Below, piece by piece: positions 10,359-63,540 of a DNA stretch of 64,000 nt; the first letter of the stretch is position 1, and each line of letters begins with the position of its first letter. Below the pieces are notes generated by a model. That model made no database searches. It was not told the origin of the DNA and saw nothing but the letters and a program-made list of their open reading frames with translations. This DNA comes from Paludibacteraceae bacterium. Its GTDB lineage: Bacteria > Bacteroidota > Bacteroidia > Bacteroidales > Paludibacteraceae. The translations under genes were made by a program, and so were the position numbers. Location: contig JAFSTO010000071.1 in assembly GCA_017450435.1 (NCBI GenBank), forward strand, positions 1 to 64,000, read 5' to 3'.

Positions 10359-10376
10359 TCAACAGAAGAATTAAAC

Positions 10377-10670
10377 ATGAAATCAGTATTTATAGTATTC
10401 AATCAAGCCAGTACCGAGCGTGTGGAGTATATGCTCGATATGCTTGGCATCAAAGGTTTCACGTTCTTTGAGCAAGTGCAAGGTCGCGGCACCAATGGTG
10501 GTGAACCTCGTCGCGGCACACATACATGGCCGGAGATGAACAGCGCCGTGATAACCATTGTTGACGACGATAAAGTATCGGAACTGCTTGACTCCGTCAG
10601 GAAGCTTGACATGCGAAATAAAGAAGTAGGAGTACGCGCTTTCACATGGAACGTGGAGCAGACAGTGTGA
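10377..10670 (+). CDS. PII-like small protein linked to the RND pump
   Basis: A 97-residue protein with the beta-alpha-beta pattern of a ferredoxin-like or PII fold: MKSVFIVFNQ, a helix RVEYMLDMLGI, strand FTFFEQVQGRG, a Gly/Arg-rich loop in the T-loop position (about 38-55), then a strand SAVITIVDDDKV and a helix. Related small proteins (such as DUF3240) occur beside RND transporters in other bacteria and are described as PII-like. It lacks the classic GlnB uridylylation motif. The gene is last in the efflux operon and its 3' end overlaps gluQ by 25 nt. A role in sensing or tuning pump activity is inference. Confidence 0.7.
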   Translation: MKSVFIVFNQASTERVEYMLDMLGIKGFTFFEQVQGRGTNGGEPRRGTHTWPEMNSAVITIVDDDKVSELLDSVRKLDMRNKEVGVRAFTWNVEQTV

Positions 10671-49544: not shown

Positions 49545-51305
49545 TTACGCATCTTCCGCCACAAGCATCATCTCACACCGCTTACAATCGGTCTGAATAC
49601 GCAGCAGTGTTTTTCCTGTTCTCAAAAAAGTAGGACGATGAGACGCCGTCGGACTATTCTTCTTGCAACACCCAAGCTCATACAGAATGCAATATTTGCA
49701 GGTCATAAGCGCCTCGGGTAATACACTGTTATTACCCGTATAAGGCACTGAATGTTCTATTGTAGTAATGCAACTGTATTTATCAGCGGCAGCCGAAGAC
49801 ATGGTATCCTGCGTTGTCAAAGAGAACTGCGAGAGGAAGTGCTCTGTCAGCCTTCGACGACAATCGTTCAAGAAAGCAGCTGATAGGAAAAGCGGCTGCG
49901 ACCACCGAACAGAAATATTCTCAGCCACAAGAGGTGTACCACCTAACTTAGAGAGCTGCTGCTTCAACACAGCTTCTGCGCGTTCAGGATTGCTTGCAAC
50001 AGTCTTCTCACAATCAAAGACGAGCGACACTCCATCGCCGTTTGCACTTTTATCCTCTGAGTCCGACAAAGTATGCATTGACATTTGAATGCCGTTTAAA
50101 CACTCTTCAAACGTTATTTGAACGGGTAGTTTACGGATAGCTGCCTTGTCACCCGATATCTGCCTGTTGAACTCCGCATCATAATTACGATACACTGCCG
50201 TTCCTTTTCTTGCATCTATCTTCGCTCCGGGTTGCCAGTACATGCCGACTCCGTCATAAGTCAGACCATCGCCATTATGCAGAGCCTTGCCGGCAATTAG
50301 TCCCTCCGGCAAAGGAGCATAACCTATCAATTCACCTGTTGATTTAGGTGTAAGTTGATTAACCAGATTATCCGGTCTTGTGAAAGAAAAGTATTCCGTT
50401 GAACCGCGGTGAAAAGTCTTCTCAGGGTCAGGCTGAAAGTTCAGCTCTACTCTTCCGCGAGCCGTGCGTCTGCAGCCCAGATGCTCTAATAACCGGTTAT
50501 AGTAAGCCGTGATGTTTCTGACGTAGGAAATATCTTTCAAGCGTCCTTCAATCTTCAGTGTTGTTACCCCTGTCTGTAGCAGTTCCTTGAGATGAGCAGA
50601 GCGGTCAAGGTCGTAGAGCGAGAGGATATGCCGGTCCTTTGCTATCAACTGCTTCTTTTCATCCAATATATCATACGGTAACCTACACATCTGTGCGCAC
50701 TCGCCTCTGTTGGCAGATCTGCCGCATACAGCTTCGCTTAAGAAACAGCGTCCTGAATATGAAACACACAAGGCACCATGCACAAAAGCCTCCAACTCGC
50801 AAGTGGTGTTTGCCCTGATGTCAGTTATCTCATTATAGGACAACTCGCGTGCCAGCACCACCCTGCGAAAGCCCATCTTTTCCAAAGCCTGCACCTGTTC
50901 CACTGTGCGGTTGTCACACTGCGTAGAAGCGTGCAGACGGATACCATCATCCGTTCCTGAGAAATCGCCGGTAGAGAGCAGCATGCGTGCCAGACGCAAA
51001 TCCTGAATGATAAGCGCGTGTACACCTATGCGCTTGCAGCCGTATGCTATTCGCAGCGCCTCGTCATACTCATCATCCTTGAGAAGCGTGTTCAGGGTCA
51101 CCAATACGCGCACCTGCCATAGGCGAGCATAGTCAACAAGTGCGGCAATATCTTCTATGGTATTGCCGGCATCCTTACGCGCCCCGAACGCCGGACCACC
51201 TATATAAACGGCGTCCGCACCTGCATCAATAGCGGCGCGCCCCACCTCTACGTTCTTGGCCGGCGAAAGAAGCTCTATCGGTAAACTATGTGATGGAACA
51301 GACAT
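49545..51305 (-). CDS. U32-family peptidase-like protein (RlhA-type)
   Basis: A 586-residue protein. The U32 barrel starts IELLSPAKNVEVGRAAIDAGADAVYIGG and includes EAFVHGALCVSYSGRCFLSE and GECAQMCRLPYDI with conserved cysteines. The C-terminal region (DUF3656-like) is followed by a Cys cluster (CKYCILYELGCCKK and CKRC). This arrangement resembles E. coli RlhA, which with iron and prephenate hydroxylates C2501 of 23S rRNA, rather than a true protease. Members in Bacteroidetes are annotated as collagenase-like peptidases. It lies 15 nt downstream of ftsY and may share its transcript. Confidence 0.87.
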   Translation of the reverse strand: MSVPSHSLPIELLSPAKNVEVGRAAIDAGADAVYIGGPAFGARKDAGNTIEDIAALVDYARLWQVRVLVTLNTLLKDDEYDEALRIAYGCKRIGVHALIIQDLRLARMLLSTGDFSGTDDGIRLHASTQCDNRTVEQVQALEKMGFRRVVLARELSYNEITDIRANTTCELEAFVHGALCVSYSGRCFLSEAVCGRSANRGECAQMCRLPYDILDEKKQLIAKDRHILSLYDLDRSAHLKELLQTGVTTLKIEGRLKDISYVRNITAYYNRLLEHLGCRRTARGRVELNFQPDPEKTFHRGSTEYFSFTRPDNLVNQLTPKSTGELIGYAPLPEGLIAGKALHNGDGLTYDGVGMYWQPGAKIDARKGTAVYRNYDAEFNRQISGDKAAIRKLPVQITFEECLNGIQMSMHTLSDSEDKSANGDGVSLVFDCEKTVASNPERAEAVLKQQLSKLGGTPLVAENISVRWSQPLFLSAAFLNDCRRRLTEHFLSQFSLTTQDTMSSAAADKYSCITTIEHSVPYTGNNSVLPEALMTCKYCILYELGCCKKNSPTASHRPTFLRTGKTLLRIQTDCKRCEMMLVAEDA

Positions 51306-51320
51306 CAGGTCACACTCCGA

Positions 51321-52271
51321 TTATAGCAAGCTGTTAACGAAAGCCGTACGGTCAAATACCTGCAGGTCGGTCATCTGTTCACCGAGACCTATATAACGAA
51401 CCGGGATTTTGAATTGGTCGCTGATACCAATCACCACTCCTCCCTTGGCAGTACCGTCAAGCTTGGTTACGGCAAGCGAGGTTACTTGTGTGGCACGCGT
51501 GAACTGCTTTGCCTGCTCATAAGCGTTCTGACCTGTCGAACCATCAAGTACAAGCATCACGTCATGCGGAGCACCGGGTACCACCTTCTGCATCACATTG
51601 CGTATCTTCGTCAACTCGTTCATGAGGTTAATCTTATTATGCAGACGTCCGGCAGTGTCAATGAGCACCACATCCACATCGTTCTTCACCGCAGACTGCA
51701 GCGTATCGAAGGCGACAGAAGCGGGGTCGCTACCCTGCTGCTGTTTAACGACAGGCACCCCGACGCGCTCACCCCATATACACAGCTGCTCCACGGCAGC
51801 GGCACGAAACGTGTCGGCAGCGCCGAGCATAACCTTCTTTCCTGCCTGCTTATACTGATAAGCCAGCTTACCGATAGTGGTTGTCTTGCCTACTCCGTTC
51901 ACGCCTACCACCATCACCACATAAGGTTTGGCAGGTAGCGGAGCATCGAAGTCGGGCTGCATAACAGGGTTATTCTCCTGCAGAAGTGCAGCCGTTTCCT
52001 CACGTAAGATGGTCTGCAACTCGGACGTTGTAAGATACTTATCCCGCTTGACACGCTCCTCTATACGCTCGATAATACGAAGAGTCGTTTCCACACCCAC
52101 ATCGCTGGTTACCAACGCCTCCTCAAGATTGTCAAGAACGTCATCATCCACAGTACTCTTACCGGCAACAGCACGAGCCACCTTCTGAAGAACACTCTCT
52201 TTGCTCTTTTCCAAGCCCTTGTCAAGAGTTTCTTTCTTTTCTTTATTACCAAATAATCCGAAAAATGCCAT
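51321..52271 (-). CDS. ftsY: Signal recognition particle receptor FtsY
   Basis: SRP-GTPase that docks ribosome-SRP complexes at the membrane. The 316-residue protein has an N domain, then G1 GVNGVGKTTTIGKLA, DTFRAAAVEQL, G3 VVLIDTAGRLHNK and G4 TKLDGTAKGGVV. The long acidic A domain of E. coli FtsY is missing, as usual in this phylum. Confidence 0.95.
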   Translation of the reverse strand: MAFFGLFGNKEKKETLDKGLEKSKESVLQKVARAVAGKSTVDDDVLDNLEEALVTSDVGVETTLRIIERIEERVKRDKYLTTSELQTILREETAALLQENNPVMQPDFDAPLPAKPYVVMVVGVNGVGKTTTIGKLAYQYKQAGKKVMLGAADTFRAAAVEQLCIWGERVGVPVVKQQQGSDPASVAFDTLQSAVKNDVDVVLIDTAGRLHNKINLMNELTKIRNVMQKVVPGAPHDVMLVLDGSTGQNAYEQAKQFTRATQVTSLAVTKLDGTAKGGVVIGISDQFKIPVRYIGLGEQMTDLQVFDRTAFVNSLL

Positions 52272-52307
52272 AACTTAATGATGAAATGATGGATTGATTA
52301 TAGTATT

Positions 52308-53072
52308 TTACATTCGCTGACGTACCACTTCATAGCAGAACACTCCTGCTGCGACACTGACATTAAGCGACTCCAATGGTCCGCTCATCGGGAGTTTTGC
52401 TTTCTGCTGACAGAGGTCAAGATTAGCCGGATAGATACCCTTATCCTCCGATCCCATAACGATAGCCACAGGCCCGCGATAATCCAAATTTGTATAAATA
52501 TCGTCGGTATGTTCTGTAGCCGCCACAGTCATTATCCCGCTTTCATTGAGAAACCGCAGCGTATTTTGCATGTTCTCCACCTTACAGATAGGCAAAGTAT
52601 GTAGTGCTCCGGCAGAAGTCTTCACCGCATCGCCATTGACAGCCGCTCCGCCTCGTGCCGGAACGATGATTGCATCCACACCGGCGCAGAGTGCCGTACG
52701 AGCAATAGCACCAAAGTTACGCACATCGGTGATGCCGTCAAGCACAAGCAGAAAAGGAGTCTTACCCTCTTCAAAAAGCATCGGAACAAGGTTCGTTATA
52801 TCTTGAAACTCTACAGGCGACAGAAAAGCAATCACTCCCTGGTGGTTCTTGTCGGTGAACCGGTTAAGTTTTTCCACCGGCACCTTCTGTACCGGCGTTG
52901 TTGTACCTGCCAGTTTCTGCATCAGTTCTCTTGCCAAAGCAGAGGTCATATCACGTCGTAGCAACACCTTATCAAGCGTCTTGCCCGCATCAACAGCCTC
53001 CATCACCGCCCTGATACCGAAGAGCATCTCTTTCTCTTTCGGGCGCCGTGTTTCATAATCATTGCGTACCAT
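52308..53072 (-). CDS. rlmB: 23S rRNA (guanosine-2'-O)-methyltransferase RlmB family
   Basis: SPOUT-class methyltransferase acting on G2251 of 23S rRNA in E. coli. The 254-residue protein has an N-terminal substrate-binding domain (MLFGIRAVMEAVDAGK) and the knot motifs DGITDVRNFGAIARTA, AIVMGSEDKG and ESLNVSVAAGVFCYEV. ATG 53072 is used; an in-frame TTG 15 nt upstream is less likely. The 53073-53268 gap upstream shows only three short AUG-initiated frames and no convincing promoter or gene. Confidence 0.92.
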   Translation of the reverse strand: MVRNDYETRRPKEKEMLFGIRAVMEAVDAGKTLDKVLLRRDMTSALARELMQKLAGTTTPVQKVPVEKLNRFTDKNHQGVIAFLSPVEFQDITNLVPMLFEEGKTPFLLVLDGITDVRNFGAIARTALCAGVDAIIVPARGGAAVNGDAVKTSAGALHTLPICKVENMQNTLRFLNESGIMTVAATEHTDDIYTNLDYRGPVAIVMGSEDKGIYPANLDLCQQKAKLPMSGPLESLNVSVAAGVFCYEVVRQRM

Positions 53073-53268
53073 AGTTGTATATATCAAATGATTTCAATAA
53101 CAGTCAGTTTACTGCATGCTTGATATAAAAAAGCTATCCTGACAACAGAGCGGCGCGGATAGAATAGCACATCAGCAGCCACAGCATGAGCCTGTTTGTA
53201 GATTTCCGACACTATAAATCACAAATCTGTTGTAGAGTCTTCATTTCGTCATATTAACTGACAAAGAT

Positions 53269-55239
53269 TTATTCGTCCAACTTTTCAAAAACCGAGTTCT
53301 TACTCTTATATTCCGGCACAATGCGTTTCATCATCTTGACGACGGGGAATGTTGTACCCTTCCGTGCTTCAGAAATCAGTTCGTCAATCATCGGCGCCAC
53401 CGTGTCATAGTCGTTCTCACGCACTTTGGCTATTGTTATCTTCTCGTTAGGCGTTGGCAATACTTTTTCCTTCTGATTAAGGAGTTCTTCATAGAGTTTT
53501 TCTCCAGGACGCAAACCTGTGTAAATGATTTTAATATCCTTCCCCGGCTCATAGCCTGCCAAACGAATCATGTTCTTTGCGAGGTCTGCAATCTTGACAG
53601 GTTGCCCCATGTCGAAACAGAATATCTCTCCGCCATTGCCAAGCGTAGCAGCCTCCAGCACGAGTTGACTGGCTTCCGGAATAGTCATAAAGTAACGAAT
53701 GATATCCGGGTGCGTTACAGTGACCGGTCCTCCGGCTGCAATCTGCTTCTTGAAGTAAGGTACAACAGAGCCGTTAGAGCCGAGCACATTACCAAACCGA
53801 GTAGTAATGAAGCGCGTCATCACATCCGTCCCTTTTGCATTATCTCTCAGTCTCTTGGCAAGCGACTGAACATAAATTTCCGCCACACGTTTGCTGGCTC
53901 CCATCACGTTGGTCGGGTTAACTGCCTTGTCGGTAGAAATCATCACGAATCGTTCCGCTCCGAACCTAACAGCTGCATCCGCCACATTCCTTGTACCCGA
54001 CACATTAGCGAGTACAGCCTGAGCCGGAAACTCCTCCATCAGCGGAACGTGCTTATACGCCGCAGCATGAAAGACGACGTCCGGCTTGTACTCGTCGAAT
54101 AACTCGTCCACCATCTGCCGGTCTCTCACATCGTTAATACAGCGTACGAACTGCACATCCGGACGAAGGTCTCTCATATCCATATACAAGTCATGCAGCG
54201 GCGACTCTGCCATATCAGCCATTACGAGCAGCCGCGGAGAGAAATCAGATATCTGGCGGACAATCTCACTTCCTATGCTGCCGGCGGCACCGGTAACAAG
54301 TACGACTTTGTTTTCCAAAATCCTGCGTACATTCTCCGTATTGATATTGATAGCCGGCCGCTCCAGCAAATCCTCAACTTTGATTGACTCAATAGAACCT
54401 ATACGTCGCTGCATATCAACATTGCCGCCCTCAACGCTATCGGGATTGATGTCAGAGAAATACGGCGTAGTCAGCACATTTATCCCATTATCAAAAAATA
54501 TACTAAGGTCGGTGAGCGGGTTCAGTTCTCGCATCTTTAACGGCGAGACAATGACATTACGTATATCCTCTTGCCGCATCATTTCTATGAGTTTGTCGTC
54601 AAGCTTATATACGTTCAGACCGAGGAGATTGTGCGTGCTTCTGGTCTCCTCGTCAGAGATGAAACCCACCGGACGGTACTGCGCCTCCATATTGGTTTGC
54701 AACATCTTCGCAATAGACAAACCGGCTGATTTAACACCGTAGATTAGAGCTTTCTTTGTTCGCGGTCCTTGGTGAGAGAGGTATTCAAACGACGTTTTAA
54801 CCGTAACCCGCCAAGCAAATAGAAAAACAATGCACACAAACACATACACAACAATCACCGTAGTATAAAACAACTGGTGATAAGTATGTGCACAGATAAC
54901 ATTGGCAAGCAGAACCAAAACACCGGTTAGAACAACGGCAAAAGCCGCTTTGATAGTATCAATAAACGTGGAAAATCGCAGGATACCGGAGTAGGTATGA
55001 AAAAGCCAGAAACAGATAAGTTGCACCACGAGTAGCAGTGCCGCCTGCTGCCATACGGGTAGAAGTATATGCGATGGACTATAGCCAAACAGATTACTGC
55101 CAATGGCATAACTTATGACAAAAGCCAACAGCGCCAGTAGCATATCTATCATCAGCACGCCCCAACGAGGCAAGTAGGTTATGTTGAGCAAGTGGTCGAA
55201 GATATCCGACTTCTGAAGTTCTTTGATACTATTCTTCAT
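53269..55239 (-). CDS. CapD/PglF-type nucleotide-sugar 4,6-dehydratase, membrane-bound
   Basis: A 656-residue inner-membrane enzyme. It has four N-terminal transmembrane helices (about 30-160), a CoA-binding-like domain (about 165-280) and a C-terminal SDR domain with VLVTGAAGSIGSEIVRQI, SAYKHV-type AAAYKHVPLMEE and ISTDKAVNPTNVMGASKR. It converts UDP-GlcNAc to UDP-4-keto-6-deoxy-sugar. It is last in the polysaccharide operon, 17 nt downstream of the aminotransferase gene that would use its product. ATG 55239 is used; an in-frame TTG two codons upstream is less likely. Confidence 0.9.
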   Translation of the reverse strand: MKNSIKELQKSDIFDHLLNITYLPRWGVLMIDMLLALLAFVISYAIGSNLFGYSPSHILLPVWQQAALLLVVQLICFWLFHTYSGILRFSTFIDTIKAAFAVVLTGVLVLLANVICAHTYHQLFYTTVIVVYVFVCIVFLFAWRVTVKTSFEYLSHQGPRTKKALIYGVKSAGLSIAKMLQTNMEAQYRPVGFISDEETRSTHNLLGLNVYKLDDKLIEMMRQEDIRNVIVSPLKMRELNPLTDLSIFFDNGINVLTTPYFSDINPDSVEGGNVDMQRRIGSIESIKVEDLLERPAININTENVRRILENKVVLVTGAAGSIGSEIVRQISDFSPRLLVMADMAESPLHDLYMDMRDLRPDVQFVRCINDVRDRQMVDELFDEYKPDVVFHAAAYKHVPLMEEFPAQAVLANVSGTRNVADAAVRFGAERFVMISTDKAVNPTNVMGASKRVAEIYVQSLAKRLRDNAKGTDVMTRFITTRFGNVLGSNGSVVPYFKKQIAAGGPVTVTHPDIIRYFMTIPEASQLVLEAATLGNGGEIFCFDMGQPVKIADLAKNMIRLAGYEPGKDIKIIYTGLRPGEKLYEELLNQKEKVLPTPNEKITIAKVRENDYDTVAPMIDELISEARKGTTFPVVKMMKRIVPEYKSKNSVFEKLDE

Positions 55240-55256
55240 AAGCAAGACAAGGATAA

Positions 55257-56501
55257 TCAGTAAATGATATTTTCTTTTATCGACTTGATGATATAGTTAA
55301 CATCCTCATCAGTGACCATAGGTCCGGAAGGCAAACAGAGTCCTCTCTTGAACAAATCCTCCGAAACACCATTTGTATAAGCAGGTGCAGCAGCAAAGAC
55401 GGGTTGTTTGTGCATCGGTTTCCAAAGCGGACGGCTCTCTATGCCCTTGGCATCCAACGCCAGCCTCATAGCCTCCACGTTGCGATTCGGCTCACAATCG
55501 GTGTGTACAGCCCCAGACTGATGAACGACTCCCGCAGCTCCACCTACAGCACCTTTGACTGCTTCAGCATAAGCGTTCTCCTCACCCTTGACATGAATAC
55601 AAGGGTCAAGCAGTATTGTATTGAGCCAGAAGTTAGAATTATAGCGTGAAGAAGGATTATCGTGGAAAGTAATACCCTTAACATCAGCGAACGCCTCTTT
55701 GTACATAGCAGCAATATGCCTGTGGTGTGCTAAGTGGTCAGCAAGTACCGTCATTTGACCACGACCTATTCCGGCGCAGATATTTGACAAGCGATAGTTA
55801 TAACCTATACTCTCATGTTGGTAGTATGGGAATGCTTCCCGAGCCTGGGTTGCATACCAGGTAATCTTATTTTTCGCATCAACGTCAGGGCACACTAAAG
55901 CACCGCCACCGGAGGTTGTAATCATCTTATTACCATTGAAGGACAGTACTCCGTATTGACCAAACGTGCCGCAGACCTGTCCATCGTACAAGCTACCCAT
56001 TCCCTCAGCGGCATCCTCAATAAGCGGAATATTATATTTATTCGCAATAGCAAGTATTTCGTCAATGCGGGCTGGCATTCCATATAGGTAAACAAGGATA
56101 ATAGCCTTAGGGTAGTTCCCTGTTTTACTCTTTCTATCGATGATTGCCTTTTCCAACAATGCCGGATCCATGTTCCAACTATCCAGTTCAGAGTCCACAA
56201 AAACCGGCGTAGCACCGATGTATGTAACAGGATTGGAAGACGCACAGAATGTGAATGATTGGCATATCACCTCATCACCGGCTGTCACGCCGCAAGCCAG
56301 CAAAGCCAAATGCACGGCTGCCGTACCTGAAGATAAAGCCACCACCTCTTTGTCCTCACCTACAAAAGCTTTAAGGTCGTCTTCAAACCCATTGACATTA
56401 GGACCAAGCGGAACAACCCAGTTTGTATCAAAAGCCTCTTGAATGTACTTCTGCTCATTACCGGACATGTGGGCAAGGCATAAATAAATTCTTTTATCCA
56501 T
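55257..56501 (-). CDS. UDP-4-keto-sugar aminotransferase (WcfR/PglE-like)
   Basis: DegT-family PLP enzyme of 414 residues. YLCLAHMSGNEQKYIQEAFD, NWVVPLGPNVNGFE, SSGTAAVHLALLACGV and the PLP-lysine segment LSFNGNKMITTSGGGA (Lys192) match the WcfR/PglE group, which aminate C4 of UDP-4-keto-6-deoxy-HexNAc. A loop at about 330-370 (VKGAVGGAAGVVHQSGAVHT) looks expanded. In B. fragilis, WcfR makes UDP-AATGal for polysaccharide A. Its neighbours here are the initiating transferase (17 nt upstream) and the dehydratase (17 nt downstream), the same functional set. Which stereoisomer is formed cannot be read from sequence. Confidence 0.87.
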   Translation of the reverse strand: MDKRIYLCLAHMSGNEQKYIQEAFDTNWVVPLGPNVNGFEDDLKAFVGEDKEVVALSSGTAAVHLALLACGVTAGDEVICQSFTFCASSNPVTYIGATPVFVDSELDSWNMDPALLEKAIIDRKSKTGNYPKAIILVYLYGMPARIDEILAIANKYNIPLIEDAAEGMGSLYDGQVCGTFGQYGVLSFNGNKMITTSGGGALVCPDVDAKNKITWYATQAREAFPYYQHESIGYNYRLSNICAGIGRGQMTVLADHLAHHRHIAAMYKEAFADVKGITFHDNPSSRYNSNFWLNTILLDPCIHVKGEENAYAEAVKGAVGGAAGVVHQSGAVHTDCEPNRNVEAMRLALDAKGIESRPLWKPMHKQPVFAAAPAYTNGVSEDLFKRGLCLPSGPMVTDEDVNYIIKSIKENIIY

Positions 56502-56518
56502 ATCAGTTTGGTTACATT

Positions 56519-57133
56519 TTATATTATTTCTCCATTATATAGCATGTGTCTGCCAAGGACGGTGCATAGTATCATCTTCAAGTCATCGATGAGCGACAAG
56601 TGATGAAGATAATAAAGGTTGATTCTCACCTTGTCAGGAAAGAGAACCGTATCATTATATTTCTGCGGGTCAGGCACAGTAGCAAGCAGTTCCTCCTCAT
56701 TACGATACTTGAGAGAAGCCGGTCCTGTTATTCCCGGTCGCAGAAGAAGTATATCCCTATTCTCACCGGTAAGCATATCAGCATATCCGGGCACATCCGG
56801 CCTCGGTCCGACGAAAGACATATCCCCTATAAATACATTCCACAACTCCGGCAGTTCATCAAGTTTATATTTACGGAGCGTTTTTCCGAGTGGTGTTATC
56901 CTGCTCTCGCCCGCCACTGACACACTGCTTCCACCATGGTTAATGTTCATCGTGCGGAACTTGTACATCAGAAACAACCTACCATGTCTGCCAACCCGTT
57001 GCTGACAAAAGAACACCGGTCCGTCAGGCATCTTCAGTTTGATTAGCGCTGCTACAACAAGCAACACAGGCCATAGGAAAAGCAGCCCGAAGAATGCTGT
57101 TAATCTGTCAAATATATATTTAATCACTTTCAC
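56519..57133 (-). CDS. Initiating sugar-phosphate transferase (WcfS/PglC-like)
   Basis: A monotopic phosphoglycosyl transferase of 204 residues that moves a sugar phosphate from UDP-sugar to undecaprenyl phosphate. It has an N-terminal re-entrant helix (ITAFFGLLFLWPVLLVVAAL-like), then VFFCQQRVGRHGRLFLMYKFRTM, the catalytic DELPELWNVFIGDMSFVGPRP (Asp-Glu dyad split from the rest) and LRPGITGPASL. The small size fits PglC/WcfS rather than the larger WbaP. It starts with GTG that overlaps the stop of the licD-like gene by one base (TAGTG). Confidence 0.92.
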   Translation of the reverse strand: MKVIKYIFDRLTAFFGLLFLWPVLLVVAALIKLKMPDGPVFFCQQRVGRHGRLFLMYKFRTMNINHGGSSVSVAGESRITPLGKTLRKYKLDELPELWNVFIGDMSFVGPRPDVPGYADMLTGENRDILLLRPGITGPASLKYRNEEELLATVPDPQKYNDTVLFPDKVRINLYYLHHLSLIDDLKMILCTVLGRHMLYNGEII

Positions 57134-58032
57134 TAAGGCAGACGAAAATCAACTATAAAATGTCGTTCTCTTTTTTCAGGAGGCGGTAACTGCATATAGT
57201 CATGATACAAATTGCGAAGGTATGCATCATAGCCGTTAGGTATAAACACCTTTTCGCCCTCAAACACGGCCTCTACCGGCGGCATATATACAGCAACGGG
57301 GAATATCTCACCATTGTAATATTTCCTCCCCGTCGGAATTCCCCAATACTTACCATCAGAAGATGCCACCAGTTTGTCAAACCACCACACCCATTTACGA
57401 TGCGGTATGATACCAAATATATGCCCCAAAAACTTCTTAAGCCGATAACGTCTGTGTGCCTTTTTGTCAAGCGACATGTATTCGTCAAGATGTTTGCTCG
57501 GATAGCAGGCGTACATTACAACAATAGAAGCAAACTGAAGCGCGTTAGCAAGTAATCCTTTGGCCGACTGCCCGAGACGAGTGTTCGGCACAGCGTCAAG
57601 CGCAAAAACATCCACATACAGTCCTTTCGGAAATGGGGAGTTGCCGCTAAAGACATCCAAGTTGAGCGAATTGCGAAGATAAATCTTCAGGAAAACTGTC
57701 TTGCTGTCGGTTTGCGGGTTAGGAGCATCATACTCATATTTATCGCCCAGTGCTCCCTGTTCAAGCAGTTGTATCAAAGCATCATAGTCCTTGCGCGGCA
57801 TCATAAGGTCGAGGTCATCGTCCCATGGAATGAACCCCTTATGCCTCACAGCACCAAGACAACTGCCGCCACACAGCATAACGGTCAGTCCGTGTGCGTT
57901 ACATAGTGCCGCAATGTCGCGGTACATTGCGACCAACGTCTTTTTCATCGCAGCAGATTCATCTGCCGTCAGTTCGCGCAAATATGACGTACGATGCGCT
58001 AATTCATTTAGTATCTCCGAGTCTGACTTCAT
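57133..58032 (-). CDS. LicD-family phosphotransferase
   Basis: A 299-residue protein with the LicD signature MLCGGSCLGAVRHKGFIPWD and DDLDLMMPRKDYDAL, in which the Asp residues bind metal. LicD proteins transfer phosphocholine from CDP-choline; the related human FKRP and fukutin transfer ribitol 5-phosphate from CDP-ribitol. The overlapping upstream gene (ATGA) encodes a fused cytidylyltransferase/SDR of the CDP-ribitol type, and no choline genes are in the window, so a ribitol-phosphate transferase is the better guess. The transfer target is presumably the glycan built by this operon. Confidence 0.87.
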   Translation of the reverse strand: MKSDSEILNELAHRTSYLRELTADESAAMKKTLVAMYRDIAALCNAHGLTVMLCGGSCLGAVRHKGFIPWDDDLDLMMPRKDYDALIQLLEQGALGDKYEYDAPNPQTDSKTVFLKIYLRNSLNLDVFSGNSPFPKGLYVDVFALDAVPNTRLGQSAKGLLANALQFASIVVMYACYPSKHLDEYMSLDKKAHRRYRLKKFLGHIFGIIPHRKWVWWFDKLVASSDGKYWGIPTGRKYYNGEIFPVAVYMPPVEAVFEGEKVFIPNGYDAYLRNLYHDYMQLPPPEKRERHFIVDFRLP

Positions 58033-59399
58033 TTCTTTCTTCTAACATCTATCACTTCCCCGGTTGCCTCTGAGAAAACAACATTAAGCGAGGCTATCGC
58101 CACCTCATCAGGCGGCAACAGCGTGTCCTCCGGCTCATTGCCGAAGTTTTGGACCCTCATCGGGGTTTTGGTTCTTTCGGGGTTGATACAATTAACACGA
58201 ATACCAAAATCGTGCCACTCCTCTGCTACAGCCTGCACAAAATTCACAATGGCAGCTTTTGTCGCCGAATACAGACTATACATCATTCGTCCGCGTGTGT
58301 AACTGCTGCTGGTATAAAACAATAGTGCCCCTCTACTCTCCTTTAGATACGGGAATGCTTCGCGTGCCACGTTGATTGTTCCTAAAAGATTGACGTTGAG
58401 CGACTGCTGTATAGTATCCGGCGTCATGCTCACCAGAGCCTGCTTTACAAGCACACCGGCAGTGTTGATTACCACATCTACCCTTCCCTCTTTTTCGTGC
58501 ACCGATTGCAACGCATGTCTTACGTTGTCACTGTCTGCCACATTGCAGCCGTTCTGCGAACGAGAGAATGAATACACATGTGCCCCGTGCTCTGTACAGA
58601 TGCCGGAAATCTCACCTCCTATTCCATAACTACCGCCGAAGACGACAATCACTTTTTCTTCCAATCCCTTCAATGCGTCAGCTGACAGATGTCTTTGGTC
58701 ACCGCGTTGCGTGCGTAGCTGGAAAAGCTTATCAAGCAGAAACAAATCCTCAACGTAAGTGAGTTTCATGTTGCTGTTTTCGCCTGCCACAACATATATT
58801 TTCTCCTCCGGCAGATAACGTCTCACCGTGCCACAGTCGTCTGTAGTGGTAAAATCAGGGTCTGCCAGAGCCAGCTCGTATGCGCGACGTATAGTACCCC
58901 GCTTAAAGCACTGCGGTGTCTGACCGTTACGCAGGGCGGCACGATTTGGAATGAAATCGATGCACTCGTCTTTATCCACAGAGATAATGGTATCAGTAGT
59001 GCGCGATGCCACATCAACGGCATTATAAGTATTAAGAGCCTCTACACAGTCAGAGATTATCCTTTCGCTGACAAGCGGACGAACAGCATCGTGGAAGAGC
59101 AAGTTGTCGTTGTCATCGGTGTAGGCATTGATAGCGGCAAGAGAGCTGTCGTAACGCTCTTTCCCGCCTGCCAATATCTTTCTCACCTTCAGATAATTGT
59201 TCTTCACGACCAGTTCTTCCACCTCGGAAATAAAGTCAGGACGGCTGACAATACAAATCTCGTCAATCAGGCGAGAGCGTTCGAACACGTCAACAGTATG
59301 CTCAATAACCTGTTTACCGGCTACCTTCATAAACTGCTTAGGTATATCATTTCCCAAACGTGTACCGCTCCCTCCGGCAAGTATAACTGCAATATTCAT
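58029..59399 (-). CDS. Fused cytidylyltransferase-SDR (Acs1/TarIJ-like CDP-ribitol synthase)
   Basis: A 456-residue two-domain protein. Residues 1-225 are an IspD/TarI-like cytidylyltransferase (AVILAGGSGTRLGNDIPKQF, LLFHDAVRPLVSE, TDDCGTVRRYL). Residues about 245-456 are a short-chain dehydrogenase (VIVVFGGSYGIGGEI, VVINTAGV, then SLYSATKAAIVNF with the Tyr-Lys pair). The order and size match Haemophilus Acs1, which reduces ribulose 5-phosphate and activates the ribitol 5-phosphate as CDP-ribitol. The alternative, that it is an IspD of the isoprenoid pathway, is unlikely given the fusion and location. The licD-like gene overlaps its stop by 4 bp. Confidence 0.88.
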   Translation of the reverse strand: MNIAVILAGGSGTRLGNDIPKQFMKVAGKQVIEHTVDVFERSRLIDEICIVSRPDFISEVEELVVKNNYLKVRKILAGGKERYDSSLAAINAYTDDNDNLLFHDAVRPLVSERIISDCVEALNTYNAVDVASRTTDTIISVDKDECIDFIPNRAALRNGQTPQCFKRGTIRRAYELALADPDFTTTDDCGTVRRYLPEEKIYVVAGENSNMKLTYVEDLFLLDKLFQLRTQRGDQRHLSADALKGLEEKVIVVFGGSYGIGGEISGICTEHGAHVYSFSRSQNGCNVADSDNVRHALQSVHEKEGRVDVVINTAGVLVKQALVSMTPDTIQQSLNVNLLGTINVAREAFPYLKESRGALLFYTSSSYTRGRMMYSLYSATKAAIVNFVQAVAEEWHDFGIRVNCINPERTKTPMRVQNFGNEPEDTLLPPDEVAIASLNVVFSEATGEVIDVRRKK

Positions 59400-59409
59400 C
59401 GTAACAAAT

Positions 59410-60207
59410 TTATTTCAAAATAACTATATCCGCAATACCGGCACAATGGTCGGAATACGCCGGCTCACATACAACAAAACTATTGATGACGCGTATGTTG
59501 TCATACCTGTCATAATACATGATATAATCGTACTTATACCTCTTGAACCACGAGCCGGGCATTGAGGCAAAAGTGCCGGAACCGTCAAGTGCATCGGTCC
59601 AATGACGGAGTATAGGCTGAACAAGTTTTTCCATAGGGTCAGCATTGAAGTCACCGGCAAGAATCTTCACCCGTCCTTTTTCTTTGTTCACAATACGTTT
59701 CACCTTCTTCATCTGTATTCTTCTGTTCACCTCATCTTCGTAGCTGAGGTGAGTACAAGCCACACAAACATCTCGTCCGCGTACATTGATATGCACCACA
59801 AGCAACGCACGCTGCTCTATTTGTCCGCCGGTGCGAGGTAACGGAATCACCTCAGTGCTAACAATATCATATTTGCTCAACAAAGCATTGCCATAGAACC
59901 CTCCTGAGGGATGGTCGATAGCTCTGCCAAAGGCGTAAAGCATATCCGTTTTGCCTGCCAATTGATTAGGCATGTTAACCCCTATTGTCCGAGGCACACT
60001 TTGTCTGTTGGTTTTGACATCCACCTCCTGCAATGCAACAATATCAGGGTTATACTGCTTTATGTACTCGCCTAAGGCGTCTAATGTTGTATCAGAGCCA
60101 TAGTGAATATTAAACGTCATTATCCGCAGGGTATCCTGCGCTAAACCAACGTTACACAAAAGAAGACAGCACAAGGCACTAATGATATATTTTGATAGTC
60201 CGTTCAT
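59410..60207 (-). CDS. Secreted endonuclease/exonuclease/phosphatase-family protein
   Basis: A 265-residue metal-dependent phosphodiesterase-fold protein with a signal peptide (ALCCLLLCNVGLAQ). The EEP motifs are IMTFNIHYG, IVALQEVD, CTHLSYEDE, KILAGDFNADP and the terminal YSDHCAGI. The substrate could be nucleic acid, lipid or sugar phosphate. It lies inside the polysaccharide operon between the CDP-ribitol synthase (10-nt gap) and a glycosyltransferase gene. A 29-bp tandem duplication covers its start region. Confidence 0.88.
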   Translation of the reverse strand: MNGLSKYIISALCCLLLCNVGLAQDTLRIMTFNIHYGSDTTLDALGEYIKQYNPDIVALQEVDVKTNRQSVPRTIGVNMPNQLAGKTDMLYAFGRAIDHPSGGFYGNALLSKYDIVSTEVIPLPRTGGQIEQRALLVVHINVRGRDVCVACTHLSYEDEVNRRIQMKKVKRIVNKEKGRVKILAGDFNADPMEKLVQPILRHWTDALDGSGTFASMPGSWFKRYKYDYIMYYDRYDNIRVINSFVVCEPAYSDHCAGIADIVILK

Positions 60208-60247
60208 ATTACCAGTGATTTTGATAGTCCGTTCATATTACCAGTGA
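60190..60247. repeat. Exact 29-bp tandem duplication over a start codon
   Basis: 60190-60218 and 60219-60247 are identical. The first copy holds the ATG of the secreted EEP gene (60205-60207, minus strand). The second copy recreates the same start upstream and opens a 10-codon frame, MNGLSKSLVI, whose TGA overlaps the main ATG. Confidence 0.9.
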
Positions 60248-60250
60248 AAA

Positions 60251-61480
60251 TCACTTTTGTTCTACAGCAACCCCTTGCATGTTTTTTATTATACAATCAA
60301 GATAAGCAGCAAACTGCTTCGCAATAATCTGATATGTGAGGTTCTGCTCTATATAGTTGTGAGCGGCAGTGCCGATGCTCTCTCTGCGCACCTTGTCATC
60401 AAGCAGTAGATTGATTTCTTTAGCCATCTGCCCGGCATGTGAAGCAATAATGATGTCTCGTCCGCTGACAACATTTTCCAGTCCCTCGGCACCGATAGGT
60501 GTGGTAACAACGCAGCACCCCATAGACATTGCCTCAAGAATCTTGTTCTGCACTCCTGCCCCTGATATCATCGGCACAACGACAACAGTGGCTTTTTCGA
60601 GATACTGCTTGGGATCATCCACAAAGCCGGTAACTATAACACTGTCTGACTGAAGGTGCTTAACCTGCTTAACCGGACGTGAGCCGACAATATAAAACTT
60701 AGTTTGCGGATGCCGACGAATCACAGCCGGCAGCACATTATGCACAAACGATGTTACTGCCACAATATTAGGTTCATAATACATCGAACCGACAAAGACC
60801 AGATTTTGCTCGTTGTTTTGCGTAATACACGGCTTTAAATCGGTACTGTTATTAACAACATAAATAGGTTTCCGGCAGTCCTTTGCATTAGATAATATAT
60901 ACTGCCTGTCAACATCTGAGATAATAAAACAACCTTGAAATTCCTGTAAGACACGTATTTCATAACGCTCCAAGCGCCGGTACTCAAGCAGATAAACAAG
61001 CTTCCATATCAGTCCGGCATTATCGGCATCGTGTTTGTAACGCATTGATAGCGCATCAACAAAGTCAATCACCTTATTACATTTCTTCCCGACGACATAT
61101 TGCGCAGCTCTGAGGTTATTACAAAACACGAAATCATACTCTGCAAGATGCTCATCGATATAACGCTGCGCCTCACGAGAATAGAAGTAACTGCACTGAA
61201 GCGGTTTGCCTGAGAACAGTCCCAATAACCCTCTTGCAACCATCGAAAAAGTTGAAGTAGTGAATTCCGTCACTTTGCCGCAATACATGTAAAGAGGCGA
61301 CACATCAGCCGGCTTTGTGGAACGACTACAAGTATAAACCACGTCCACATCACACGTCTCGGACAACATTCTCAGCATCTCAGTACTGCGAATGGTTGCC
61401 CCATCAATATTCGGCAGTAGCGTCTTGGTATTGATAAACAAGACGCGCGGACGAGAAATATTTCTATTATCTACTTCCAT
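60251..61480 (-). CDS. Group 4 glycosyltransferase
   Basis: A GT-B fold glycosyltransferase of 409 residues. The start PRVLFINTKTLLPNIDGATIRS gives the acceptor-side fold; the C-terminal domain has LVFVGSMYYEPNI and the donor site GAGVQNKILEAMSMGCCVVTTPIGAEGL, which includes the E-x7-E motif of GT4. It is cytosolic, probably adding a sugar to the lipid-linked glycan. The donor is unknown. It precedes the EEP gene in transcription order, with the duplicated 29-bp segment in between. Confidence 0.9.
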   Translation of the reverse strand: MEVDNRNISRPRVLFINTKTLLPNIDGATIRSTEMLRMLSETCDVDVVYTCSRSTKPADVSPLYMYCGKVTEFTTSTFSMVARGLLGLFSGKPLQCSYFYSREAQRYIDEHLAEYDFVFCNNLRAAQYVVGKKCNKVIDFVDALSMRYKHDADNAGLIWKLVYLLEYRRLERYEIRVLQEFQGCFIISDVDRQYILSNAKDCRKPIYVVNNSTDLKPCITQNNEQNLVFVGSMYYEPNIVAVTSFVHNVLPAVIRRHPQTKFYIVGSRPVKQVKHLQSDSVIVTGFVDDPKQYLEKATVVVVPMISGAGVQNKILEAMSMGCCVVTTPIGAEGLENVVSGRDIIIASHAGQMAKEINLLLDDKVRRESIGTAAHNYIEQNLTYQIIAKQFAAYLDCIIKNMQGVAVEQK

Positions 61481-61536
61481 CAGTTACGACATTTATCACA
61501 GATGTGACATTTTGATACCGGATTATTTAGACATGC

Positions 61537-62373
61537 CTATAACAAACATTTTCTGCAAATTTCTTCCTGCTTGAGCACACAGTACACATTGTAGAAAAAT
61601 CTGCTTTTTCTCCCCATATATTCTATTACATTCTTAAATGGGAACAACATTTTCACCGCAATTGCCATCATGGGTGCATACTCCACATTTAATTTGCAAA
61701 ACACATACCTGAACCCAATAACCTGCACAAGGAACGCCTGATAATTAGTTTCATGTTTGATATTTCGTTCCCCATCAACTAAATAGCGGAAGTGCAGATT
61801 ATGCAAATAATACTCAACCATTGAGTAAGCCAGTGCAGCATTGGCTTCTGTGTTAAGATATCGTGTCGGTATCTTGACTTGTTCCAAAAAGACATCCACA
61901 CCTTTCCGCCTGCAATATCCGTATCCGATAATCTCGTTGTCCGTCACATTCCTGCATATCCAGAAATCGGTGTCAACCAACTGACATAAATGGTTGCAAA
62001 ACTCTTCTTTATTCGGTTTAGGCCTGTATTTGTCAGGATAATCCGCAAAACAATCCTCTGCTATCTCAAAAAAACGTTCAACATATTCTTTGATAACACC
62101 TTTATGTAATCGTTCAACTCTGCAATTTCCGAGCCCGCGTTTAATCCGATAACGTTGCTTACTTTTTAGTTCTGATAATGGAGTAAAACTGTCGCAAAGA
62201 CAATACCACCATTCATTTACCGTAGTTGTATCGAAGTCTGACGTCCAACGGGCAAACATAGCTTTTTTTGAGCGAACAGCCATCTTTGCATCGTCTCGTG
62301 TAGGAGATTCTTCACCGATTGAGCCATGCCAGACAAGAGCGTTTTGATATAATATCCAATTATCGGCTGCCAT
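61537..62373 (-). CDS. GNAT/FemAB-like protein of the polysaccharide locus
   Basis: A 278-residue protein that I cannot assign firmly. RYRIKRGLGNCRVERLH, EFFEIAEDCFADYPDKYRP-like and FWICRNVTDNEIIGYGYCRRKG are reminiscent of FemAB/GNAT acyltransferase folds found in capsule loci. The C-terminus is basic and hydrophobic. It overlaps the WbsX-like gene by 14 bp. Base composition is more AT-rich than in the core genes nearby, suggesting acquisition with the locus. An acetyl or aminoacyl modification of a sugar is plausible but only inferred. Confidence 0.55.
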   Translation of the reverse strand: MAADNWILYQNALVWHGSIGEESPTRDDAKMAVRSKKAMFARWTSDFDTTTVNEWWYCLCDSFTPLSELKSKQRYRIKRGLGNCRVERLHKGVIKEYVERFFEIAEDCFADYPDKYRPKPNKEEFCNHLCQLVDTDFWICRNVTDNEIIGYGYCRRKGVDVFLEQVKIPTRYLNTEANAALAYSMVEYYLHNLHFRYLVDGERNIKHETNYQAFLVQVIGFRYVFCKLNVEYAPMMAIAVKMLFPFKNVIEYMGRKSRFFYNVYCVLKQEEICRKCLL

Positions 62374-63457
62374 ATATCACATCATGAAGAGCATTAATAT
62401 ACCCTTTTCCGAACTTGAGGTCAGGCTCCATATAATTACCTTCCGCCCACTCGTTCCACGATTTTAAGAAAAGTATTTTCTCTCCTCCATCAATAGGATG
62501 CGTTGCCTCCATAATCTGCTGAACATGCTCAGCAAATAACTCAGGTGTGGATTTGTGAAACACGGTTCCTATCATTCCACGACGTGGAGTAAGATCCCAT
62601 GAAGGATATATAGACGGAATAACATTACCGCCCTTCAGCACACTCAAGTCATATATTTTCAAAATATCCTTGTATTGCGTAATAATAGGGTGTCTAAAGA
62701 TATAAGCCCACAACTTTCTCAGTCGAGACTGACGGAAAAAGTCATATATACACTCAAAATTGATAGCGTCTAAAACAGCTAACTTCTCATTATTAAGTTC
62801 TTCTTTTTTTGCCTGTCCGATAAAGTAAAAATCAGGAAGATTGTTTACTTTTGCCAATTCGCGCCATCTGGCAATAAATGCCCGCAAATCCGGCACTGCC
62901 AAAGGAGCATATATAAGAAAGAGGAGTCGCCCGTCTATCTGCATATATCTCTTGTCACGGAACATTGGAAGCATCGTATTGAAATGCAAGTCAATGTCAT
63001 CTTTTGAATACGTCTGTTCAATCAGCATCTCCTGACTGAATCGCGAGACATCAGGGTTCCATAATTTTTTCAACCAACTATGGTTAGCCCAGCCGAGGCA
63101 GAACGGAAAATCCGGTTTGCCGGAAGCAACTACCTCTTGCAAAGGACGTTCAAGCAATTGTCTTCCGCCCCCTAACCAATAGTGCCAATAGCAAAAACCG
63201 TCCACCCCCGCCTCTCTTGCCAGTTCTGCCTGCGCTTCACGCACATCAGGCAGACGAAGGTCATAAAAACCGAGGTCTGCAGGGATACGCGGCTGGTAGT
63301 GCCCGCGAAAAAGCGGACTAGCCTTAGCCACATTGGTCCATTCGGTAAACCCTTTTCCCCACCATTCGTCGTTCTCTTTCACAGGATGAAACTGCGGAAG
63401 ATAAAAAGCTATAACCCTCGCCTTCCTACCATTCATAAAATCCTTCTTGTCTTGCAT
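62360..63457 (-). CDS. WbsX-like GH99-type glycan enzyme
   Basis: A 365-residue protein of the WbsX/GH99-like group often found in O-antigen and capsule loci: VIAFYLPQFHPVKENDEWWG, GFTEWTNVAKASPLF, GFYDLRLPDVREAQ and FCYWHYWLGGGRQLLERP. It resembles glycoside hydrolase family 99 in fold, but in such loci it is treated as a glycosyltransferase-like or processing enzyme. ATG 63457 (MQDKKDF) is chosen over an in-frame TTG 21 codons upstream. It is the first gene of the minus-strand operon and its 3' end overlaps the next gene by 14 bp. The region 63458-63540 upstream shows no clear promoter. Confidence 0.8.
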   Translation of the reverse strand: MQDKKDFMNGRKARVIAFYLPQFHPVKENDEWWGKGFTEWTNVAKASPLFRGHYQPRIPADLGFYDLRLPDVREAQAELAREAGVDGFCYWHYWLGGGRQLLERPLQEVVASGKPDFPFCLGWANHSWLKKLWNPDVSRFSQEMLIEQTYSKDDIDLHFNTMLPMFRDKRYMQIDGRLLFLIYAPLAVPDLRAFIARWRELAKVNNLPDFYFIGQAKKEELNNEKLAVLDAINFECIYDFFRQSRLRKLWAYIFRHPIITQYKDILKIYDLSVLKGGNVIPSIYPSWDLTPRRGMIGTVFHKSTPELFAEHVQQIMEATHPIDGGEKILFLKSWNEWAEGNYMEPDLKFGKGYINALHDVIYGSR

Positions 63458-63540
63458 ATATATATCTTTAACAACGGCTGACTGATACACGCTTGTACTT
63501 TGTCCTGTTGTGCTTTTCAAATTTGTTTACATTTCATTTA

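What the first reader, a model, noticed from the sequence alone, without database searches (positions are those of the whole stretch)
53269..63457. Surface-glycan operon combining an AATGal-type initiation set with CDP-ribitol synthesis and a LicD transferase
The sequence shows, on one strand with tight or overlapping junctions, a PglF/CapD-like dehydratase, a WcfR-like aminotransferase, a PglC/WcfS-like initiating transferase, a LicD-family protein and an IspD-SDR fusion of the Acs1 type. In B. fragilis the first set starts polysaccharide A on the amino sugar AATGal; in pneumococcus AATGal, ribitol phosphate and LicD coexist in teichoic acid. The inference is a lipid-linked glycan carrying a free amine and ribitol phosphate, hence possibly zwitterionic. 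No wzx/wzy flippase or polymerase is in the window, so the polymer may be short or completed elsewhere.
Basis: partly seen in the sequence, partly recalled or inferred. Interest (0 to 1): 0.8.

Follow-up and report, generated by a model that had tools for sequence, protein, structure and literature searches.

The report
Ribitol-phosphate capsule operon in Bacteroidales
A bacterium, probably from a ruminant gut, carries a capsule gene cluster that likely starts each sugar unit with an amino sugar and decorates it with ribitol phosphate, and its ribitol-activating enzyme also looks like the only candidate for an essential step in making the cell's isoprenoid lipids.

Summary
The five genes are there as described. 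The window cuts the operon: on the next bases of the same contig, same strand, lie Wzy, a Wzx-like protein, Wzz and Wza, so the missing wzx/wzy is a window artefact. CDP-ribitol is the best-supported product of the IspD-SDR fusion: its IspD half matches TarI structures better than true IspDs, 79 of 79 recognised relatives have a TarI-type Gly before QTPQ, and 62 of 79 have a LicD or a PF04464 transferase within three genes. AATGal is not shown: the aminotransferase is PglE-like, WcfR was not compared, and close relatives mostly use another aminotransferase. Fusion plus transferase is common in Bacteroidota; the exact mixture here is local. Unforeseen: in this genome (96% complete) the fusion is the only IspD domain over the cut-off, although DXR, IspE and IspF are present. 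Of 26 high-quality congeners, five of eight with the fusion have no other IspD, while all 18 without it have one. The fusion may also serve the MEP pathway. Verdict: partly supported; new variant of a known kind.

The parts
53269..55245 (-). PglF-like membrane UDP-GlcNAc 4,6-dehydratase (658 aa)
   Evidence: Polysacc_synt_2 380 bits and CoA_binding_3; WlaL (5bju) E 2e-82 over query residues 287-647, shared ISTDKAVxPTNxMG (that WlaL is C. jejuni PglF is recalled)
55257..56501 (-). DegT/PglE-like sugar aminotransferase (WcfR role inferred)
   Evidence: DegT_DnrJ_EryC1 299 bits; nearest solved chains 1o61 and 4ztc, E 6e-89 and 5e-88 (that these are C. jejuni PglE is recalled)
56519..57133 (-). 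PglC/WcfS-like initiating phosphoglycosyl transferase (204 aa)
   Evidence: Bac_transf 180 bits; diacetylbacillosaminyl-1-phosphate transferase 8g1n E 1e-24
57133..58032 (-). LicD-family phosphotransferase (only LicD found in the genome)
   Evidence: PF04991 162 bits, full length; one match in the genome; FKRP over residues 37-89 only, E 1e-4
58029..59399 (-). [quoted passage not shown] only IspD domain over the cut-off in the genome
   Evidence: IspD 156 bits residues 3-221, adh_short 116 bits residues 249-418; ranking of solved relatives; tree; genome search
59410..60207 (-). Endonuclease/exonuclease/phosphatase-fold protein, probably secreted, recurrent near the fusion
   Evidence: Exo_endo_phos 73 bits; hydrophobic N-terminus ending AQDT judged by eye, no signal-peptide program run; homologue within three genes of the fusion in 8 of 79 named loci
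60251..61480 (-). GT4 glycosyltransferase
   Evidence: Glyco_trans_1_4 96 bits
61537..62373 (-). 278-aa protein without family match
   Evidence: No Pfam or NCBIfam match at E 0.001, none in Pfam at E 1, no solved relative, no homologue in the loci searched
62360..63520 (-).
   Evidence: PF14307 419 bits
63541..63999 (-). C-terminal part of an AAA_14/DUF4143 ATPase gene lying inside the gene run; it continues beyond the window
   Evidence: DUF4143 68 bits; whole gene 417 aa on L002

Best explanation
It is the downstream half of a Wzy-dependent capsule/exopolysaccharide operon of a Bacteroidales species close to ruminant-gut Paludibacteraceae. A PglF-like dehydratase and a PglE-like aminotransferase turn UDP-GlcNAc into a UDP-2-acetamido-4-amino-2,4,6-trideoxyhexose; the PglC-like enzyme puts it as a phosphosugar on undecaprenyl phosphate. 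Two GT4 enzymes and a WbsX enzyme extend it. The fusion reduces D-ribulose 5-phosphate with its SDR half and makes CDP-ribitol with its TarI-like half; LicD transfers ribitol phosphate onto the unit. A WbbJ-like enzyme probably O-acetylates; a Wzx-like flippase, Wzy, Wzz and Wza finish and export the polymer. Genes and families are shown; substrates, linkages, the sugar's stereochemistry and a zwitterionic charge pattern are inferred.
For: Gene content and order. IspD half: 4jis, 2vsh, 3f1c and 6xhp at E 1e-30 to 4e-26 rank above 1vpa and all other IspD chains (2e-23 or weaker); only 4jis and 6xhp are named ribitol-5-phosphate cytidylyltransferase in the listing, that 2vsh is pneumococcal TarI is recalled, and 4kt7, ranked first, is named IspD. 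An IspD beside recG in another family of the order ranks an IspD chain (5ddt) first. Tree: fusions, TarI and the genus's capsule-type IspDs on one side of a branch (97/86) from true IspDs. Gly before QTPQ: 14 of 14 fusions of the first set and 3 of 3 TarI, none of the other rows; 79 of 79 named fusions recognised. Partner: LicD or PF04464 transferase within 3 genes in 62 of 79 named fusion loci (LicD only 44, PF04464 only 12, both 6) against 12 of 51 standalone IspD frames. Partner swap: L197, fusion 80% identical, has PF04464 (151 bits) as next gene and no LicD. Three Flavobacterium genomes have the fusion but no DXR match, so there it is unlikely to serve the MEP pathway. No choline kinase.
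Against: The IspD half scores 156.5 on NCBIfam's ribitol-5-phosphate cytidylyltransferase model (cut-off 166) and 177.3 on TIGR00453 ispD (cut-off 181.3): under both; 2 of 4 named fusions scanned pass the former. In the tree the fusions are nearer to the genus's standalone IspDs, which lack the Gly, than to TarI (100/100 without TarI). 17 of 79 loci have neither transferase within three genes (some are cut by contig ends). Among 16 named loci with fusions 74% or more identical (L189-L204), 13 have LicD within three genes and L190, L197, L203 do not. No characterised Acs1 or Bcs1 sequence was at hand. The Wzx call is weak (NF041503 28 bits, cut-off 300; no relevant Pfam match). Being the sole IspD domain fits a MEP role as well.
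Confidence: 0.75

Rival explanations
1. Dual use: the TarI-like half of the fusion makes CDP-ribitol for the capsule and also CDP-methylerythritol for isoprenoids, having replaced a lost dedicated IspD. One enzyme then feeds both the polymer and the lipid that carries it.
For: One IspD domain over the Pfam cut-off in G000; the second hit (18.4 bits) is another nucleotidyltransferase by eye. DXR, IspE, IspF present. With a recG-linked IspD as query, 33 of 39 other-family genomes of the order give E 2e-31 or better; of 61 congeners only G018, G022, G023, G047 do so well (3e-29 to 3e-43), 53 give 1e-25 or weaker and 4 nothing. Of 26 congeners at least 90% complete and at most 5% contaminated, 5 of 8 with the fusion have no other IspD and 18 of 18 without it have one (Fisher p 0.0009, not corrected for relatedness). 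Four of five further named close relatives with the fusion as sole IspD have DXR (G112-G116). On a RecG tree of 25 genomes the fusion-only state needs 4 to 5 changes, so it may have arisen more than once. G031 (76% complete) keeps the IspD half without SDR, nested among the fusions, as its only IspD; no LicD or PF04464 in its locus; it passes TIGR00453 ispD at 184.4 bits.
Against: The TarI-type Gly is in all recognised fusions. Human ISPD makes CDP-ribitol as lone survivor of the pathway (PMC4873967, passages). Draft genomes may miss a gene; G001, G017, G058, G059 show no IspD but are 54-82% complete. IspE was missed in 2 of 10 genomes, one of them of high quality, so single absences mean little. 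G010, counted as fusion-only, has a second match at the cut-off (26.8-27.2 bits) in a 600-aa frame that I did not count. In the RecG tree the fusion-only label is hardly more clustered than shuffled labels (121 of 500). Four order relatives (G061, G063, G070, G075) also lack a typical IspD, so the loss is wider than the fusion. An unrelated cytidylyltransferase could do the step.
Confidence: 0.35
2. The fusion is mainly an IspD of the MEP pathway that happens to lie in a glycan operon, and its SDR half has some other role; there is no ribitol.
For: It is the only IspD domain over the cut-off in G000 while DXR, IspE and IspF are there.
Against: Bacteroides clarus, Phocaeicola coprophilus, B. 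mediterraneensis, Leyella stercorea, Prevotella sp. 885 and Sphingobacterium faecale genomes carry the fusion plus a separate IspD; three Flavobacterium genomes carry it without DXR; TarI-type Gly 79 of 79; CDP-alditol transferase nearby in 62 of 79.
Confidence: 0.06
3. The CDP-alditol is not ribitol but another polyol, made by the same kind of reductase plus cytidylyltransferase and moved by LicD.
For: CDP-6-D-glucitol is made for Campylobacter capsules (PMC10918830, title and start of abstract in the listing). SDR specificity cannot be read from sequence here.
Against: The pairing of the two activities is that described for H. [quoted passage not shown] nearest named structures are ribitol-5-phosphate enzymes.
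Confidence: 0.15
4. LicD transfers phosphocholine, as in pneumococcus and Haemophilus (recalled), and the fusion serves another enzyme.
For: LicD's only NCBIfam match is a cholinephosphotransferase (Mf1, 58 bits, far under its cut-off of 225).
Against: No choline kinase at E 0.01 in the genome (transporters and cytidylyltransferases of the choline route were not searched); LicD overlaps the fusion gene by 4 bases and lies within three genes of it in 8 of 8 loci L066-L073.
Confidence: 0.04

Closest known systems
Haemophilus influenzae Acs1/Bcs1 bifunctional CDP-ribitol synthase
   Same: Reductase and CDP-ribitol pyrophosphorylase in one protein of a capsule locus (reference titles in PMC4873967)
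   Different: Bacteroidota clade; partner is LicD or a PF04464 transferase; in part of this genus it is the only IspD domain. Acs1 was not aligned here; its domain order is recalled
Gram-positive TarI (with TarJ), teichoic acid CDP-ribitol synthesis
   Same: Named ribitol-5-phosphate enzymes are among the nearest solved relatives of the IspD half; shared Gly before QTPQ
   Different: Reductase is a fused SDR, TarJ is a separate protein of another dehydrogenase family (recalled); product goes to a Gram-negative capsule
B. fragilis polysaccharide A and other putative AATGal zwitterionic capsules (wcfR/wcfS)
   Same: 4,6-dehydratase, aminotransferase and initiating phosphoglycosyl transferase, Wzx/Wzy assembly (PMC13063421 and PMC10167101, passages)
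   Different: Dehydratase gene is in the operon, whereas ungD2 lies outside that of B. fragilis; negative charge would come from ribitol phosphate, in polysaccharide A it is pyruvate; WcfR orthology not tested
Mammalian ISPD-FKTN/FKRP ribitol-phosphate pathway
   Same: IspD-fold CDP-ribitol maker plus LicD-domain ribitol-phosphate transferases (PMC4873967, passages)
   Different: Only a short region of FKRP matches; acceptor would be a lipid-linked capsule unit
Campylobacter PglF-PglE-PglC bacillosamine start
   Same: Nearest solved structures of the three initiation enzymes
   Different: No PglD-type N-acetyltransferase recognised: the hexapeptide protein scores 64.9 on the NeuD/PglB/VioB model (cut-off 160.8) and 110.7 on WbbJ (cut-off 243)

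Membership tests
Acs1-type bifunctional CDP-ribitol synthase | IspD/TarI-fold half and SDR half in one chain | tested here: met
   IspD 3-221 and adh_short 249-418; SDR motif GGxxGIG and the Y and K of YxxxK invariant in 14 of 14 aligned fusions
Acs1-type bifunctional CDP-ribitol synthase | Cytidylyltransferase half of ribitol-5-phosphate type rather than MEP type | tested here: inconclusive
   For: ranking of solved relatives, branch from true IspDs, Gly signature. Against: 156.5 bits on NF001183 with cut-off 166; 2 of 4 named fusions pass it (173.1, 176.4; 143.0 and 156.4 do not)
Acs1-type bifunctional CDP-ribitol synthase | Makes CDP-ribitol from ribulose 5-phosphate, NADPH and CTP | not testable with these tools
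   Enzyme assay needed
LicD family | PF04991 over its cut-off | tested here: met
   162.2 bits, cut-off 22.6; GGSCLGxxRHxGFIPWDDDLD invariant in the 8 sequences aligned, window included
LicD family | Ribitol phosphate rather than choline phosphate as substrate | not testable with these tools
   Only indirect: gene neighbourhood and no choline kinase
WcfR / AATGal synthase | Orthology to B. fragilis WcfR | not tested
   No WcfR sequence was at hand; nearest solved relatives are PglE-type
WcfR / AATGal synthase | Axial (galacto) C4 amine in the product | not testable with these tools
   Product analysis needed
PglF-type 4,6-dehydratase | Nearest to WlaL/PglF rather than PseB or CapE/FnlA types | tested here: met
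   WlaL 281 bits against 155 or less for the others; PseB 170.7 under its cut-off 407.75
Small PglC-type phosphoglycosyl transferase | PF02397 core without a large N-terminal domain | tested here: met
   204 aa, 180.2 bits; 8g1n E 1e-24
Wzx/Wzy-dependent capsule operon | Wzy, Wzz and Wza on the same strand in the same gene run | tested here: met
   Wzy_C 41.8 (cut-off 31.7), Wzz 29.6 (25.5), Poly_export 60.9 (28) on L002; co-transcription not tested
Wzx/Wzy-dependent capsule operon | Wzx flippase | tested here: inconclusive
   507-aa protein, NF041503 WZX_like 28 bits with cut-off 300, no relevant Pfam match
Zwitterionic polysaccharide | Free amine and negative charge in each unit | not testable with these tools
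   Inferred from gene content only

The most novel reading that the evidence does not exclude
In a group of Paludibacteraceae-like Bacteroidales the dedicated IspD has been lost, and the capsule operon's CDP-ribitol synthase carries the MEP pathway's cytidylyltransferase step, so one bifunctional enzyme supplies both the capsule's ribitol donor and the isoprenoids, including the undecaprenyl carrier on which that capsule is built. Capsule loci, normally exchangeable, would then be tied to an essential function.
Probability: 0.35. Interest if true: 0.75.

Novelty: new variant of a known kind. Interest (0 to 1): 0.52.

Why it matters
Ribitol-phosphate polymers are known from Haemophilus capsules and Gram-positive teichoic acids. 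The full-text searches (listings only; 1 of 1, 3 of 3, 1 of 1 and 12 of 1,712 papers shown) listed no title or abstract on an IspD-SDR plus LicD pair in Bacteroidota, yet the pair is common there. A 4-amino-sugar start together with ribitol phosphate predicts zwitterionic surface glycans by a route other than that of polysaccharide A. If the fusion also serves the MEP pathway, an essential housekeeping enzyme has been displaced by a capsule enzyme, which E. coli ispD complementation would test directly.

Tried and rejected
Considered and rejected: (1) the TAL-effector matches of LicD in the PDB search are short repeat matches; the stretches printed have E of several hundred or more. (2) 226-aa frames directly before recG in several congeners looked like IspD by size but those scanned are TonB proteins (5 of 7 frames scanned; the other two are a beta-lactamase-family protein in G000 and a hydrolase). 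(3) The weak second IspD hit in G000 (18.4 bits, C31) reads as a different nucleotidyltransferase; judged by eye, no family scan was run on it. (4) HDxVRP as a TarI signature was dropped: many Bacteroidales IspDs share it. (5) Promoter and terminator scans were not run.

Led nowhere: the 278-aa protein has no match. No named WcfR or Acs1 sequence was obtained.

In one search the frames were picked by a pattern that asks for QTPQ and a GxxGIG-like motif, so only the residue before QTPQ is a free observation. Among the 13 (L066-L078), 11 have LicD within three genes, L076 only PF04464, L074 neither. The 51 standalone IspD frames are from this genus and one order relative, so they are a limited control. 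The LicD and PF04464 sets come from iterated profiles; Pfam itself was run on one neighbour in each of 20 of the 29 named loci without LicD: 8 are PF04464 over the cut-off (L197, L210, L212, L214, L220, L235, L248, L251), L238 is under it, 11 are other things or nothing. L212 was counted as 'none'. G026 and G044 IspDs were not put in the tree of 87 domains. G007 and G023 RecG rows are fragments. G011 and G026 were left out of the 26 for contamination over 5% (completeness as printed, rounded). The labels TrmH, FtsY and U32 for the genes at 49545-53087 are my reading of the sequences; no family scan was run on them.

Full report
WHAT IS THERE. Pfam assigns them as Polysacc_synt_2 with a CoA_binding_3 part, DegT aminotransferase, Bac_transf, LicD, and IspD followed by adh_short, all far over the cut-offs. 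Upstream in the same direction lie an EEP-fold protein with a signal-like N-terminus, a GT4 glycosyltransferase, an unassigned 278-aa protein and a WbsX glycosyltransferase.

THE GENE RUN GOES BEYOND THE WINDOW. The window is bases 1-64000 of a 146,100-base contig. On bases 60001-80000 (L002) the strand continues with an AAA_14/DUF4143 gene, a WbbJ-like hexapeptide acetyltransferase, a GT4 enzyme, Wzy (41.8 bits, cut-off 31.7), a Wzx-like protein (weak: 28 bits on NF041503, cut-off 300), Wzz and Wza. Between the AAA_14 gene and the acetyltransferase gene is a gap of 304 bases, so the run may be two transcripts. At the other end it stops before genes that I read as trmH and ftsY; glycan genes sit beside an ftsY homologue in several congeners too.

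WHOSE GENOME. The scan of named genomes returned as nearest relatives (fusions 74-81% identical, L189-L204) MAGs labelled Paludibacteraceae, Paludibacter, Bacteroidales or Bacteroidia, where a source is given mostly from ruminants, one from pig. The window's genome itself is unnamed, 2.65 Mb, 96% complete.

THE FUSION. Its IspD half matches chains 4kt7, 4jis, 2vsh, 3f1c and 6xhp best; 4jis and 6xhp are named ribitol-5-phosphate cytidylyltransferase, the others carry IspD-type names, though 2vsh is TarI as I recall; other IspDs follow at E 2e-23 or weaker. As a check, an IspD next to recG in another family of the order (L085) finds an IspD chain first. In a tree of 87 IspD domains the 14 fusions fall in one group of 16 (88/80) together with two standalone domains: G031, which is best read as a fusion that lost its SDR (98/85 with G045), and G049. 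Fusions, TarI and the genus's standalone capsule-type IspDs lie apart from true IspDs (97/86), but within that side the fusions are nearer to the standalone ones (100/100) than to TarI. A Gly before QTPQ marks 14 of 14 fusions and 3 of 3 TarI in that set and no other row, and 79 of 79 named fusions recognised. NCBIfam is undecided: 156.5 bits on the ribitol-5-phosphate model (cut-off 166) and 177.3 on TIGR00453 (cut-off 181.3); 2 of 4 other named fusions pass the former.

PARTNERS. Within three genes of the fusion, 50 of 79 named loci have LicD and 12 more have a PF04464 CDP-glycerol-type phosphotransferase; 17 have neither. Standalone IspD frames have one of the two in 12 of 51 cases. A close relative (L197) has PF04464 and no LicD. 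Two families of CDP-alditol transferase as alternative neighbours argue that the fusion makes a CDP-alditol. The genome has one LicD and no choline kinase at E 0.01.

THE AMINO SUGAR. PglF-like and PglE-like enzymes, a PglC-like start, and no PglD-like N-acetyltransferase recognised among the genes scanned. This fits a free 4-amine, as in AATGal, but the C4 configuration is open and WcfR was not compared. In 6 of 8 congeners whose fusion loci were fetched with closest fusions (L066-L069, L071, L073, not L070 and L072) the fusion-LicD pair goes with a different aminotransferase plus a PglC-like gene; the one scanned (L066) is nearest to PseC, 296 bits, under its cut-off of 423.5. So the window's exact mixture is local, but a 4-amino-sugar start plus ribitol-phosphate genes recurs.

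THE UNFORESEEN PART. The fusion is the only IspD domain over the Pfam cut-off in G000, while DXR, IspE and IspF are present. DXR and IspF are found in all 17 high-quality genomes among the 24 tested (16 congeners and one genome of another family); IspE in 8 of 10. With the recG-linked IspD as query, 33 of 39 other-family genomes match at E 2e-31 or better, but of 61 congeners only four come near that (G018, G022, G023, G047), and these four group with the typical IspDs in the tree. Four other-family genomes (G061, G063, G070, G075) have only weak matches and two none, so the loss is not confined to this genus. The recG loci of 24 congeners (flanks of 1.5 kb) show no IspD homologue. Among 26 high-quality congeners, the five without any other IspD all have the fusion; one of these, G010, has a further match right at the cut-off in a 600-aa frame that I did not count. 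Five more named close relatives have the fusion as sole IspD, four of them with DXR. G031 kept only the IspD half; its Gly has become Ser and it passes the ispD model. Against: Bacteroides, Phocaeicola, Leyella, Prevotella and Sphingobacterium relatives have the fusion plus a separate IspD, three Flavobacterium have the fusion without DXR (that flavobacteria use mevalonate is recalled), so the ancestral job is most likely the glycan; draft genomes and an unrelated enzyme remain possible. I give dual use 0.35.

LITERATURE. Read as passages: PMC4873967, PMC13063421, PMC10167101. Listings only. I saw no listed title or abstract on this combination in Bacteroidota; the listings are capped and subscription papers are mostly not held, so this is no proof of absence.

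VERDICT. Observation confirmed, interpretation partly supported: a Wzy-dependent capsule gene run with an Acs1-like fusion and LicD, new variant of a known kind. AATGal and zwitterionic charge remain inferences. The sole-IspD pattern is the most interesting outcome.

Noticed in passing
window 59410-60207: An EEP-fold protein with a signal-like N-terminus recurs within three genes of the fusion in close relatives (8 of 79 named loci); its role in a capsule operon is unexplained, perhaps a periplasmic phosphodiesterase.
   Followed up: partly
L079 (G031:C55) 9942-10640: A fusion relative without SDR and without LicD in its locus, kept in a glycan gene run as that genome's only IspD domain, with Ser in place of the TarI-type Gly.
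   Followed up: partly
L082, L118, L121, L150 and others: Many congeners carry another capsule-type IspD clade (40 rows in the tree), often beside a SIS-CBS gene; its substrate is unknown and it may be the usual MEP enzyme of the genus or part of another CDP-sugar route.
   Followed up: partly
G061, G063, G070, G075: Order relatives of other families that match the recG-linked IspD only weakly (E 1e-21 to 1e-25) but match the fusion's IspD half well: IspD displacement may be wider in the order.
   Followed up: no
L080 10357-11826: A protein with Asn_synthase and CTP_transf_like domains between an IspD and a LicD gene.
   Followed up: no
window 61537-62373: 278-aa operon protein with no family, structure or neighbour match; an N-acyl transfer role would abolish the free amine.
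   Followed up: partly
L002 3541-4794 (window 63541 onward): AAA_14/DUF4143 ATPase gene inside the gene run, with a 304-base gap before it.
   Followed up: no
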